Part shown: piece by piece, positions 28,862 to 37,240 of the stretch
Numbering within the stretch: position 1 is the first letter of the stretch
Layout of the letters: every line of letters starts with the position of its first letter
Source: Aeriscardovia aeriphila
GTDB taxonomy: Bacteria > Actinomycetota > Actinomycetes > Actinomycetales > Bifidobacteriaceae
Reading direction: 5' to 3'
NCBI RefSeq assembly: GCF_002259595.1
Contig: NZ_MWWU01000002.1
Coordinates: forward strand, 62,001 to 126,000
DNA length: 64,000 nucleotides
Notes under the pieces: generated by a model
The model's database searches: none
Seen by the model: the letters and a program-made list of their open reading frames with translations, nothing else
What the model was told of the DNA's origin: nothing
Made by a program: the position numbers and the translations under genes

Positions 28862-28910
28862 GTGTGCGAAAAAGCCCGCTGTACTCAGTACAGCGGGCTT
28901 TTTCGCACAC
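28862..28910. terminator. Perfect 49-base palindromic terminator
   Basis: The 23-base arms (28862-28884 and 28888-28910) are perfectly complementary around a TCA loop. An A5 and a T5 sit within the stem, so it could terminate from either side. It separates pepN from the restriction-modification island. Confidence 0.88.
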
Positions 28911-29002: not shown

Positions 29003-30831
29003 TTGATCCGCGAAAAAATTGTCAACACGGTAGGCCTGAATTACTTAACTACTAACGTTGAAGAAAGCGAATTTAGCTACCCGAAAGCATTCAAAGCAAA
29101 GGGAATTGAATTCATTCCAATAAAGAAGCGGGGGGGGGGGATCGTATTTGGCAAAAAATTGATAGAAGATTTGAGCTCGATGGTGTCTCCCTGCTAATCG
29201 AGACGAAGACAGATTTTGATAAGAAGACATCTGAAGTAGAGGAGCAATTAGCCGCTTACGTTGAGTATGAGAAGCAACTAACCGGAAATAAAATCGTTGC
29301 GATGGTAGCTAATACCAGTGATGACAGAATTCTTGTATGGAGATCTGAAGTTGAGAACGATACGAGGTTAGTAAACGAAACTGCAATACGTTCTATGCCA
29401 GAATATGTCGCGATGTTCGATGCGAAGCATACAAATAACAAAGAAGAAGTTATGCGCAACACCTATCAGCTCAATGAGTTGTTGCATCGCCACGGTATTG
29501 CAGAGAAGCTGCGCTCTCAGTTTGTTGGAACGTGCCTGTTGGCTATTAAGAACGGGCTGAATTACAACAGAAAAATGGAGACCTCCCAGGTTATCAGTGG
29601 AATTCGGACAATTCTGGGAAATCTGCTCGAAGGCTCTTTGCAGAAGGCTGAGAAGCTGACTTTGATTGATCAGCGAGTTCTTCAATCTCAAGATGTTCGT
29701 GAAATGGATAGCGAGAGCTTGTGTCTGATTCTTGATTTCATTAGGACGCGGATTTTCCCATTTATTAATGACAAGAGCACAGCAGGGCAGGATCTTCTTA
29801 ATCTATTCTTCATTACATTCAACAAGTACGTTGGAAAATCAGATAAAAACCAGGCTTTTACACCAGATCACATTACAGACTTCATGACTAAAATATGCAA
29901 TGTCAATCGAAACTCTGTGGTGTTGGATATGACGTGTGGAAGTGGTTCATTCCTAGTAAGGGCGATGACGAAAGCACTTGCAGATTGTCACACCCAGGTA
30001 GAAGAAGATGCAGTTAAAAAGCATCATATTTATGGTGTTGAATACGATGAGCTTGTATATGGCCTTGCCACAACAAATATGTTGATTCATAGTGATGGTA
30101 ACTCCAACATAGTTCAGGGTAGTTGTTTCGAAGAAGTTCCTCGCTTTATAGACGACGGTGTTAAGTTCAATGTGGTGCTGATGAACCCGCCCTATAATGC
30201 CATGGCTAAGCAAGTTCCGAAAAACTATTCGAGCACATGGGGAAAGAGCAAAACTGATCCTTCGAAGGGACTTTATTTTCTCAAGTTCATTCTTGACCAA
30301 ATGAACGAGCATAACATGTCAGGAAAGCTTGCAGTGTTGCTTCCCATGGCTGCTGCTATTGGTAATAACACATTGATGAAGAAGATGAAGAACGCAATTC
30401 TGAAGAATAATACTCTTGATGCAGTGTTCTCGCTACCAGATGACATCTTCTACCCTGGCGCAAGTGCCTGCGCGTGCTGCATGGTCTTTGACGTGGGTAC
30501 GCCGCATAAGTCTGCTAATCGCGAGACGTTCTTCGCCTACTGTAAGGATGACGGCTTCAAGAAGCGAAAGAACCTTGGACGCGTCGAGCAGATGGACGAG
30601 AACGGTACTAGCCTATGGTCGTCCATCGAGAAGAAGTGGCTCAACACGTATAAGAATCGTGATGTCATTACTGGTTTCAGCGCCCGTCAGATGGTTACTG
30701 GTAACGATGAGTGGCTGTGCGAAGCGTACATGGAAACTGATTACACGACACTTACAGAGGACGATTTTCAACAGACGGTCAATGACTACCTCGCTTATCT
30801 GGTGAAAACGGGGGTGGTGTATGAAGCTTGA
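29003..30831 (+). CDS. BcgI-like type IIB restriction-modification subunit A, out of frame at a G11 tract
   Basis: The reading frame from TTG 29003 (AAGGA at 28991-28995) runs MIREKIVNTVGLNY... into a poly-G tract and stops at 29197. The next frame resumes straight after the tract (DRIWQKIDRRFELDGVSLL, then IETKTDFDKKTSEVEEQLAA) and runs to 30831. One G more or two fewer would join them into about 609 residues. The N-terminal part then has a PD-(D/E)xK-type nuclease site (LDGVSLLIETK). The rest is an adenine-N6 methylase with FTPDHITDFM, VLDMTCGSGSFL (motif I) and MNPPYN (motif IV). This fused nuclease-methylase plus a separate 340-residue specificity subunit is the BcgI layout. As sequenced the gene is off. 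An ATG at 29302 lacks a ribosome site. Confidence 0.85.
29130..29140 (+). repeat. Poly-G tract (11 G), probable phase-variation switch
   Basis: Eleven consecutive G within the coding sequence of the restriction-modification A subunit, surrounded by AT-rich sequence. The tract sits exactly at the junction of two frames that otherwise form one conserved protein. (G)9 or (G)12 would restore the frame. Confidence 0.9.
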
Positions 30832-31843
30832 TACGACTAAGTGGAAATGGTTCCAGCTTGGCGGTGATGATGGACTGTTTGATATTCGCAAAGGCAAGCG
30901 CCTAACTTCCGAAGATCAAACTGAGGGTAATACGCCGTATATCGGGGCAATAGATTCCAACAATGGTGTCTCGAATTATATTGGGCAGGAACCCATTCAT
31001 GAGGGCAATACGATTTCATTGAGCTATAACGGCTCGGTGGGAGAAGCGTTTTACCAGCCGACACCCTATTGGGCTACTGACGATGTGAACGCTTTGTATC
31101 TTCGCCCTGAGCACGGAACGCTTTCCCCCGCAACGGGTCTGTTTGTGTGTGCTGTTCTCAAGCATGATAAATACAGGTATTCATACGGTCGTAAGTGGAC
31201 TCTCGACAATATGACGGCCACCAAAGTCAAACTTCCTGCCACATCCGATGGCAAGCCTGATTGGCAGTGGATGGAGTTGTATATCAGTTCGCTACACAGT
31301 GAGCCGCTAAAGACAAGAAATGCTGGGAAAAATACTCTAAAACCTCTCGAGTTTGATATACATGAATGGCGTGAGTTCCGTGCCGAGGAATTATTCGACT
31401 CAATTTATAAAGTTGCGGCATATGATGACAGTGAGCTTGAGCAAGTTGGCGTGTGGAACGAAAAGGTAATTCCGTATGTTACCAGAACTGATTTAGATAA
31501 TAGTGTTAAGTCGCTCGTAGTAAATGCGGGACTGGGCAACGTTGAGAATGGGAACGCAATTGTTATCGGTGATACGACATCCACAATATCGTATCAGCCA
31601 GGGCCGTTTGTGGCAGGCGAACACATTATCGCGGCACGTGCTGATTGGATGAACAAGTACACAGGTCTGTTCATCACGTGTCTGTTGCGGCGGGAGCGGT
31701 ACAGATACTCCTACGGCAGGGCCTTTAAGCTCGATTCAATTCGTAATACAGAGCTTAGGCTTCCTGTGACAAGCGATGGAGTTCCTGATTGGCAGTGGAT
31801 GGAGAACTATATTAAGTCATTACCATATGGCGACCGATTGTGA
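30821..31843 (+). CDS. BcgI-like type IIB restriction-modification specificity subunit B
   Basis: The protein is 340 residues, the size of BcgI subunit B. Two target-recognition halves repeat the same frame: KWKWFQLGGDDGLFDIRKGK... YRYSYGRKW... LPATSDGKPDWQWMELYISSL, then EWREFRAEELFDS... YRYSYGRAF... LPVTSDGVPDWQWMENYIKSL. Each half would read one arm of a bipartite recognition site, as in HsdS. The ATG lies inside the end of the A gene (11-base overlap). No separate restriction gene follows, supporting a two-subunit type IIB enzyme that cuts on both sides of its site. Codon use and base composition are more AT-rich than in neighbours, suggesting transfer. Confidence 0.87.
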   Translation: MKLDTTKWKWFQLGGDDGLFDIRKGKRLTSEDQTEGNTPYIGAIDSNNGVSNYIGQEPIHEGNTISLSYNGSVGEAFYQPTPYWATDDVNALYLRPEHGTLSPATGLFVCAVLKHDKYRYSYGRKWTLDNMTATKVKLPATSDGKPDWQWMELYISSLHSEPLKTRNAGKNTLKPLEFDIHEWREFRAEELFDSIYKVAAYDDSELEQVGVWNEKVIPYVTRTDLDNSVKSLVVNAGLGNVENGNAIVIGDTTSTISYQPGPFVAGEHIIAARADWMNKYTGLFITCLLRRERYRYSYGRAFKLDSIRNTELRLPVTSDGVPDWQWMENYIKSLPYGDRL

Positions 31844-31871: not shown

Positions 31872-31907
31872 AAAAGCCCAACGTTTCTTGTGAACGCTGG
31901 GCTTTTG
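31872..31907. terminator. Bidirectional terminator between the R-M locus and glyA
   Basis: AAAAGCCCA.CGTT-TCTTGTG-AACG.TGGGCTTTT hairpin between convergent genes. A-rich and T-rich flanks suit both directions. Motif-like GACAATCTGAAG follows at 31925-31936. Confidence 0.8.
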
Positions 31908-35832: not shown

Positions 35833-37240
35833 GTTTTGCGCTGTACAACCTCCGGCTTTAGCCGGGGGATATAAGGTGCTTATCTTTTTACTATTCTAGC
35901 TCACATATGTAAAGTAGTGTGCTATATTGGAAACATGAACACCAAGACAGTAAAGCGGGCATACCGGTTCCGCTTCTACCCCACGACGGAACAGGAGAAC
36001 ATGCTCCGTCGTACTCTGGGGTGCTGCCGCAAGGTGTACAACATGGCCTTGGACGCCCGCTCGACCGCGTGGACTCTCCACCGGGAGAAGGTCGGCTACT
36101 CGGACACGAGCCGAATGCTCACCGCTTGGAAGAAGACAGAGGAACACTCCTATCTGACGGAAGTGTCGTCTGTCCCGTTGCAACAATCGCTACGGCATTT
36201 GCAGGCTGCGTTCAAGAGGTTCTTCGACAAGACCGGCTCCTATCCGAGATTCAAAGCGAAACACGAGGGCGGTTCCGCCACTTACACGGTCTCCGCGTTC
36301 ACATGGGATGGGGAGCACAGAGCGTTGACGTTGGCGAAGATGCGCGAACCATTGCATATCCGGTGGTCGCGCACCCTGCCACGTCCAAGCCGACCGTCCA
36401 GCGTGACGGTCAGTTTGGACGCGGTTGGACGCTGGCACGTCAGCATACTGGTCGAAGATGTCATCTTTCAACCAGCCAAGAATGGAAACATGGTTGGCAT
36501 CGACATGGGATTGGAACACTTCGCCATCCTCAGCAATGGTGAGAAAATCGACAATCCACGATACTTGAGAAAACACTTGAAGAAACTCGGGCTGTTGCAA
36601 CGAAAACTCGCCCGGAAGAAGAAAGGAAGCAACAATTATCGTAAAGCCCGGTTGAAGGTGGCTAAGGCGTACGCGAAGGTCAAAGACAGTCGCACCGACT
36701 TTCTCCATAAGCTCTCGACGAGAATCATCCGTGAAAACCAAACGGTTGTCATCGAGGACTTGGCTGTCAAGAACATGAGCCGACGCTGCAAGCCAAAACC
36801 TGACTCGGACAATCCGGGACAGTACCTGCGCAACGGGCAGAAGGCGAAAAGCGGTCTGAACAAAAGCATCAGGGACGCAAGCTGGCGACAATTCCGCACC
36901 ATGCTCGAATACAAGGCCGAATGGTACGGACGCCAACTCACGGTCATCGACCAATGGTATCCCAGCAGTCAAATCTGCCACACGTGCGGCAAAAACACTG
37001 GCAGGAAGACATTGGACGTCAGAACATGGGAATGCCCATACTGCCATACCATGCAAGACCGCGACCTGAACGCCGCCATAAACATACTATCCGCCGGACT
37101 GGCGGTTCGAGCCTGCGGGGATTCACGCCTCACCGAAGCAACACTCCGGTAAACACAAGAGCGTGAATCGTCTCAACCTACAGGAAACTCTTCCCCGTGA
37201 GGGGAGGAATCCCCCGACTTCAGTCGGGGGAGGAAGTCAA
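35833..37240 (+). mobile_element. TnpB-only IS200/IS605-type element
   Basis: Left end: hairpin CCTCCGGC-TTTA-GCCGGGGG (35849-35868). Right end: hairpins CCCC-GTGA-GGGG (37193-37204) and CCCCCGACT-TC-AGTCGGGGG (37211-37230), then GGAAGTCAA ending near 37240. IS608 has a TCAA right tip of this kind. No terminal inverted repeats or target duplication are expected for this family. The left boundary is inferred: TTTAT at 35828-35832 would be the flanking target motif. No TnpA transposase gene is present in or near the element, so it cannot move by itself. Confidence 0.75.
35935..37152 (+). CDS. tnpB: TnpB RNA-guided nuclease (IS200/IS605 family)
   Basis: The protein is 405 residues, starting MNTKTVKRAYRFRFYPT. 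The RuvC catalytic residues are all present: Asp in VGIDMGLEHF (about 189), Glu in VVIEDLAVKNM (about 272) and Asp in MQDRDLNAAINI (about 375). The zinc ribbon CHTCGKNTG... CPYC lies between the last two. TnpB proteins use an RNA from the element's right end to cut DNA next to a short target motif, helping the element persist. The ATG at 35935 is chosen over an in-frame ATG at 35917 because the conserved N terminus starts here. The reading frame looks intact and functional. Confidence 0.93.
   Translation: MNTKTVKRAYRFRFYPTTEQENMLRRTLGCCRKVYNMALDARSTAWTLHREKVGYSDTSRMLTAWKKTEEHSYLTEVSSVPLQQSLRHLQAAFKRFFDKTGSYPRFKAKHEGGSATYTVSAFTWDGEHRALTLAKMREPLHIRWSRTLPRPSRPSSVTVSLDAVGRWHVSILVEDVIFQPAKNGNMVGIDMGLEHFAILSNGEKIDNPRYLRKHLKKLGLLQRKLARKKKGSNNYRKARLKVAKAYAKVKDSRTDFLHKLSTRIIRENQTVVIEDLAVKNMSRRCKPKPDSDNPGQYLRNGQKAKSGLNKSIRDASWRQFRTMLEYKAEWYGRQLTVIDQWYPSSQICHTCGKNTGRKTLDVRTWECPYCHTMQDRDLNAAINILSAGLAVRACGDSRLTEATLR

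What the first reader, a model, noticed from the sequence alone, without database searches (positions are those of the whole stretch)
29003..31843. Phase-variable BcgI-like type IIB restriction-modification locus, currently off
An 11-G tract at 29130-29140 separates two frames that together form one nuclease-methylase protein. Translation upstream (TTG 29003) and downstream (DRIWQKIDRRFELDGVSLL...) joins perfectly with one G more or two fewer. Because nuclease (LDGVSLLIETK) and methylase (DMTCGSGSF, NPPY) are one chain paired with a 340-residue specificity subunit, slippage would switch restriction and methylation together. Phase-variable type I and III systems are well known. A slippage-controlled BcgI-type enzyme in a bifidobacterium would be unusual.
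Basis: partly seen in the sequence, partly recalled or inferred. Interest (0 to 1): 0.82.

Follow-up and report, generated by a model that had tools for sequence, protein, structure and literature searches.

The report
G-tract switch on a restriction enzyme
In a Bifidobacteriaceae-like gut bacterium, a run of 11 guanines puts the two halves of a DNA-cutting-and-marking enzyme out of register, so copying slips that add one or drop two guanines should switch this phage-defence system on and off; a second genus of the same family has a guanine run at the same spot that arose separately, and there the gene reads through.

Summary
An 11-G tract (29130-29140) breaks one reading frame: the TTG frame stops after 64 codons, while 9 or 12 G gives a 608/609-aa protein. 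No other G or C run in the window exceeds 6. The protein is a BcgI-like (Type IIB) RM subunit: a PD-(D/E)XK nuclease fold with invariant D53/E66/K68 fused to an N6-adenine methylase, overlapping a 340-aa two-TRD specificity gene. The cassette is a low-GC insertion between pepN and glyA, absent from a 90-93%-identical sister genome. The tree requires two independent gains. No other homolog examined has a tract there. The same genome holds a second out-of-frame G-tract gene, a sugar transferase. Best reading: slippage phase variation of the whole enzyme, assembled in the OFF phase. The kind is known: Helicobacter BcgI-like S genes and a Campylobacter Type IIG gene are phase-variable, and B. breve pili switch by G-tract slippage. 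What I did not find described is a tract in the RM subunit of a two-gene Type IIB system. Length heterogeneity and enzyme activity are untested.

The parts
28862..28910 (.). Inverted-repeat hairpin after pepN (likely bidirectional terminator); left boundary of the RM insertion
   Evidence: Read from sequence; identity with the sister genome ends near 28902
29003..29197 (+). Upstream fragment of the RM gene in the 11-G frame: TTG start with AAGGA-like RBS, 64 codons, stop TAA 29195-29197
   Evidence: sequence
29130..29140 (+). G11 homopolymer, predicted slippage site; encodes Gly residues in a loop just before the nuclease core
   Evidence: loop placement in predicted models
29140..30831 (+). 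Rest of the RM subunit in the other frame (563 codons + stop): PD-(D/E)XK nuclease core, helical connector, N6-adenine methylase
29161..29208 (+). Nuclease motif D53 ... E66-T-K68 (9-G numbering), invariant in 48 aligned homologs
29926..29952 (+). Methylase SAM-binding motif DMTCGSGSF
30184..30195 (+). Methylase catalytic motif NPPY, invariant in 48 homologs
30821..31843 (+). Specificity (S) subunit, 340 aa, two TRD-type domains; start overlaps the end of the RM gene by 11 bp
31872..31906 (.). Terminator-like hairpin after the S gene
   Evidence: Read from sequence; not flagged by the consensus scan

Best explanation
A two-gene BcgI-like (Type IIB) restriction-modification system whose RM subunit is switched on and off by gain or loss of G residues in a homopolymer near its 5' end. 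In the assembled 11-G state translation stops after 64 codons, so neither nuclease nor methylase is made, and the S subunit has no partner. Slippage to 12 or 9 G restores one 608/609-residue chain, which with S should methylate and restrict a bipartite site. Shown here: the tract, both open frames, intact domains and invariant catalytic residues, a separately gained tract at the same site in another genus of the family, and the accessory insertion. Inferred: slippage in living cells, the OFF state of the population, and enzyme activity.
For: Frames join only at 9 or 12 G among 9-13 tested. Domains: N6_Mtase 4.7e-32 and Methylase_S 1.1e-26; PADLOC Type IIG RM 2.8e-57 and Type II specificity 4.6e-34. 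D53, E66, K68 and NPPY are invariant in 48 homologs. The N-terminal model (pLDDT 91) resembles PD-(D/E)XK nucleases, all weak hits; the whole model aligns to Type IIB BsaXI over residues 1-552. RM gene versus its nearest homolog: dN 0.08 with saturated dS, so no long decay. G185 has a G10 tract at the equivalent position, in frame; the tree forces two origins. No tract there in the ~75 other homologs with that region. A second gene of this genome is also broken by a G-tract and open at 9 or 12 G. In B. breve pili, G-tract lengths are mixed within cultures and determine pilus expression (PMC9187656).
Against: No reads or other strains of this species were available, so no length variant was seen at this locus. 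Both ORF-interrupting tracts in this genome are assembled out of frame, which systematic homopolymer miscounting could also produce. Independent gain at the same site is only two cases, in a variable loop that tolerates glycines. No enzymatic or methylome data.
Confidence: 0.75

Rival explanations
1. Assembly or base-calling error: the true tract is a fixed 9 or 12 G and the gene is simply intact.
For: Long G runs are hard to sequence; the B. breve paper found the annotated G11 differed from the main culture population. Two ORF-interrupting tracts in this genome are both assembled out of frame.
Against: Even then an uninterrupted 9-12 G run is slippage-prone, and the parallel G10 tract in a single-contig genome is in frame. 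The other main ORFs around the locus are intact.
Confidence: 0.1
2. A decaying pseudogene: the frameshift is a one-way loss after horizontal acquisition.
For: Accessory low-GC insertion (RM 43.6%, S 47.0%, window 55.1%) missing from the sister genome. The gene is broken as assembled.
Against: The only lesion is a length change in a homopolymer. The remaining 563 codons and the S gene are open, all checked catalytic residues are kept, and synonymous sites are saturated while dN is 0.08 against the nearest homolog.
Confidence: 0.08
3. The tract works at expression level: ribosome or RNA-polymerase slippage on G11 makes a low constant amount of full-length enzyme, with no need for DNA switching.
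For: A G11 run could slip during transcription or translation (general knowledge, not tested).
Against: No supporting signal was found. The tract in the other genus is assembled in frame, so no recoding is needed there.
Confidence: 0.04
4. A variant of the switch in which the OFF phase is methylase-only: an internal start (ATG 29302) yields a 509-aa protein lacking the nuclease motif but keeping the methylase.
For: ATG 29302 is the first ATG in that frame after the tract and lies past D53/E66/K68.
Against: No Shine-Dalgarno-like sequence before it by eye, and it lies about 100 bases beyond the stop codon of the truncated frame.
Confidence: 0.03

Closest known systems
Hpy99XXII / HP1471-HP1472, BcgI-like systems of H. 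pylori (PMC3936762)
   Same: Two-gene BcgI-like RM + S system with a G homopolymer whose length sets the frame (13 versus 14 G)
   Different: There the tract is in the S gene; here it is near the 5' end of the RM gene, upstream of the methylase and most of the nuclease
Cj0031, phase-variable Type IIG enzyme of Campylobacter jejuni (PMC4889913)
   Same: Nuclease and methylase in one gene that is phase-variable; phase variation alters methylation and phage restriction
   Different: Described as endonuclease and methyltransferase in one gene; here a separate two-TRD S subunit is present.
Bbr_0113/Bbr_1889 pilus G-tracts of Bifidobacterium breve (PMC9187656)
   Same: 10-11 G tract near the 5' end of the first gene, two ORFs joined by slippage, same bacterial family (inferred)
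   Different: Controls pili, not restriction-modification
BsaXI and BcgI, Type IIB enzymes (PMC11997821, PMC3874165)
   Same: N-terminal PD-(D/E)XK nuclease fused to N6-adenine methylase, separate S subunit
   Different: No phase variation described in the passages read; the BsaXI chain in the PDB is 916 aa against 608/609 here

Membership tests
BcgI-like / Type IIB RM | RM subunit with N-terminal PD-(D/E)XK nuclease fused to an N6-adenine methylase | tested here: met
   Pfam N6_Mtase, PADLOC Type IIG RM, invariant D53/E66/K68 and NPPY; nuclease fold supported by the predicted model with weak structural hits
BcgI-like / Type IIB RM | Separate S subunit with two TRDs encoded next to the RM gene | tested here: met
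   340 aa, Methylase_S in 2 stretches, Specificity_II, TRD halves compared
BcgI-like / Type IIB RM | No adjacent HsdR translocase or extra methylase | tested here: met
   Neighbours are pepN and glyA (gene names by eye from the translations)
BcgI-like / Type IIB RM | (RM)2S assembly; cuts on both sides of a bipartite site and methylates both strands | not testable with these tools
   Needs purified enzyme or a methylome
Simple-repeat contingency locus | Repeat inside the coding region whose length sets the frame, both phases otherwise open | tested here: met
   9/12 G open, 10/11/13 G closed
Simple-repeat contingency locus | Repeat far longer than expected by chance | tested here: met
   Next longest G/C run in the window is 6; none of 11 or more in simulations
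Simple-repeat contingency locus | Length varies between strains or cells | tested here: inconclusive
   No second genome of the species; another genus has an independent G10 in-frame tract
Simple-repeat contingency locus | Reversible change of phenotype | not testable with these tools
   Needs culture
Type I RM | Separate HsdR and HsdM with ATP-driven translocation | tested here: not met
   No HsdR gene adjacent; the nuclease is fused to the methylase

The most novel reading that the evidence does not exclude
Gut Bifidobacteriaceae have repeatedly converted horizontally acquired Type IIB enzymes into slippage-switched systems by growing a G-tract at one permissive loop of the RM subunit, so that restriction and genome-wide adenine methylation flip together and split a clonal population into phage-resistant and DNA-receptive cells, and perhaps different expression states.
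Probability: 0.35. Interest if true: 0.65.

Novelty: new variant of a known kind. Interest (0 to 1): 0.45.

Why it matters
If the tract slips in life, restriction and methylation rise and fall together in a gut actinobacterium, which would affect phage survival, DNA uptake, success of genetic tools and possibly gene regulation. The parallel tract in another genus makes this a repeatable evolutionary outcome that can be tested by counting tract lengths in existing long-read data.

Tried and rejected
Strain-level tract variants: no second genome of the species is held; the sister genome lacks the cassette; an exact flank scan of viral contigs found nothing. Plasmid and phage relatives exist but are under 60% identical. 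A wider survey of 395 genomes of the class gave one remote partial homolog. Consensus promoter and terminator scan was uninformative; no Rfam match. Orthologous G-tracts compared between G000 and G001 did not give a clean slippage pair: one (L106/L146, 11 versus 10) looks like a substitution at the tract edge, one is 9 in both with a 10-versus-7 neighbour, and for a third no run of 6 or more G was found in front of the same gene in G001. Type I classification rejected: no HsdR gene adjacent. Pfam on the N-terminal domain of the window protein alone: no match; only weak nuclease-family matches among homologs.

Full report
What was checked. The window carries an uninterrupted run of 11 G at 29130-29140. 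Reading from TTG 29003, the 11-G frame gives 64 codons and then a stop; with 9 or 12 G the frame runs on for 608 or 609 codons to the stop at 30829-30831; 10 and 13 G do not restore it. It is not a chance run: outside this tract the longest G or C run in 64 kb is 6, and Markov sequences of order 1 to 5 gave no run of 11 or more. Genome-wide, 9 runs of 9 or more G exist; most lie outside or at the 5' edge of genes.

What the gene is. The downstream part matches N6_Mtase (4.7e-32) and the next gene matches Methylase_S twice. PADLOC names them Type IIG restriction-methyltransferase (2.8e-57) and Type II specificity subunit (4.6e-34). In 48 aligned homologs G11, E20, E23, D53, E66, T67, K68 and the NPPY motif are invariant. 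Pfam has no significant model for the N-terminal domain of the window protein; some homologs give weak matches to nuclease families such as Hjc, Cas4 and HSDR_N_2, among unrelated weak matches. A predicted model of residues 1-144 (mean pLDDT 91) has the helix, strand, strand, helix, strand order of PD-(D/E)XK nucleases, and its best, individually weak, structural neighbours are mostly nucleases of that superfamily (cap-snatching nucleases, Holliday junction resolvase Hjc, SSO0001, HincII; best E 2.9e-3). The whole model (pLDDT 83) is close to Type I M subunits over the methylase part and aligns with the Type IIB enzyme BsaXI over residues 1-552, with a large rmsd that suggests different domain placement. 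In BsaXI mutagenesis places the nuclease site at E73, D90, E105 and K107 (PMC11997821); E66-x-K68 here matches the E-x-K pair, and D53 is the likely equivalent of D90 (inference from motif order). The frame break lies between the invariant E20/E23 and D53/E66/K68, so the 64-codon product cannot be a nuclease or methylase.

Context. The S gene starts 11 bases before the RM gene ends. The pair sits between pepN and glyA. In a sister genome (G001; about 90-93% identical flanks) the same junction holds about 70 bases instead of about 3.07 kb. G+C is 43.6% for RM and 47.0% for S against 55.1% for the window. The nearest RM homologs, 87% and 83% identical, are in MAG contigs labelled Prevotella and Spirochaetales. 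This is best read as a horizontally acquired accessory cassette. Against the nearest homolog the RM gene has dN 0.08 with saturated dS, so it has been under strong constraint on that branch. TRD1 of the window S protein is 85% identical to TRD2 of the nearest homolog, and against L040 the two TRDs are in the opposite order, which resembles the domain movement described for H. pylori S genes, including a Type IIG system (PMC3077401).

Evidence bearing on slippage. Among 189 genomes of the family, four (the window's own included) carry close homologs. Two of these have a G-tract at the same protein position: the window (11 G, out of frame) and G185 (10 G, in frame, with an intact 357-aa S ORF). 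A pattern search for a G-tract just before the 'LDxRFE'-type motif found only these two genomes, with none in the reversed-pattern control. None of the about 75 other homologs with this region has a tract there. In a tree of 39 RM proteins the window groups with tract-free L022 and L040 (100/100) and G185 lies elsewhere; well-supported branches force two separate origins, although L020 (G185) is a long branch whose exact place is unsure. The glycines fall in a loop (about residues 42-47) of variable sequence and length between homologs, so length changes by whole codons should be tolerated. The same genome has a second gene of this design: a G10 tract 94 bases after an ATG breaks a bacterial sugar transferase (PF02397, 3.2e-66), and 9 or 12 G would join 591 or 592 codons. 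In relatives from other taxa, G8-G9 tracts lie in the linker between the two TRDs of the S gene: L025 and L049 in frame, L029 out of frame.

How it most likely works. Shown: the tract, the two frames, an otherwise intact RM-S operon, and recurrent tracts. Inferred: during replication the tract gains one G or loses two, restoring the 12- or 9-G frame and full RM subunit; RM with S then methylates and restricts a bipartite site; slippage away turns both off. [quoted passage not shown] Turning the enzyme on in an unmethylated genome could harm the cell before methylation is complete; how this is survived is unknown here. The first ATG in the methylase frame after the tract (29302) lies beyond the nuclease motif, so a methylase-only product in the OFF phase is conceivable but has no obvious ribosome-binding site.

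What is known. In H. pylori, the S genes of BcgI-like systems have G13/G14 tracts that decide the frame, and the corrected J99 system methylates TCAN6TRG (PMC3936762); a later study again found G14 in that S gene (PMC12003011). The phase-variable Type IIG gene cj0031 of C. jejuni alters methylation and phage restriction (PMC4889913). In B. breve, G10/G11 tracts near the start of pilus operons decide expression, with mixed tract lengths within cultures (about 37% G11 and 60% G12 at one locus), and joined forms are enriched in mice (PMC9187656). The mechanism and the enzyme family are therefore known; the tract in the RM subunit of a two-gene Type IIB system, gained separately in two genera of one family, was not found in the papers searched. 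That search covers open-licence papers only.

Limits. The genome is 84% complete by the tool's estimate. No reads, no second strain and no activity data were available, so the OFF state and the switching itself remain predictions.

Noticed in passing
L108 (G000:C5:896426-896435, minus strand): G10 tract puts a bacterial sugar transferase (PF02397, exopolysaccharide-priming type) out of frame; 9 or 12 G gives a 591/592-aa ORF. A second predicted slippage switch in the same genome.
   Followed up: partly
L025 5190, L029 5166, L049 5256: G8-G9 tracts in the linker between the two TRDs of BcgI-like S genes in Bacillota; L029 is out of frame, leaving a single-TRD product. Resembles the H. pylori S-gene tracts.
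   Followed up: partly
30821-31843: TRD1 of the S subunit is 85% identical to TRD2 of L022, and the TRD order is reversed relative to L040: domain movement between positions.
   Followed up: partly
L106 (G000:C5:401880-401890), L103, L104, L107: Further G9-G11 runs outside or just 5' of ORFs, including upstream of a solute-binding protein gene (L104); possible promoter- or RBS-level slippage sites.
   Followed up: partly
35917-37152: 411-aa ORF that looks like a TnpB/OrfB-type transposon protein (by eye from sequence, not searched).
   Followed up: no
L022, L040: Closest RM homologs (87% and 83%) are in MAG contigs labelled Prevotella and Spirochaetales, pointing to wide horizontal transfer or mis-binned contigs.
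   Followed up: no
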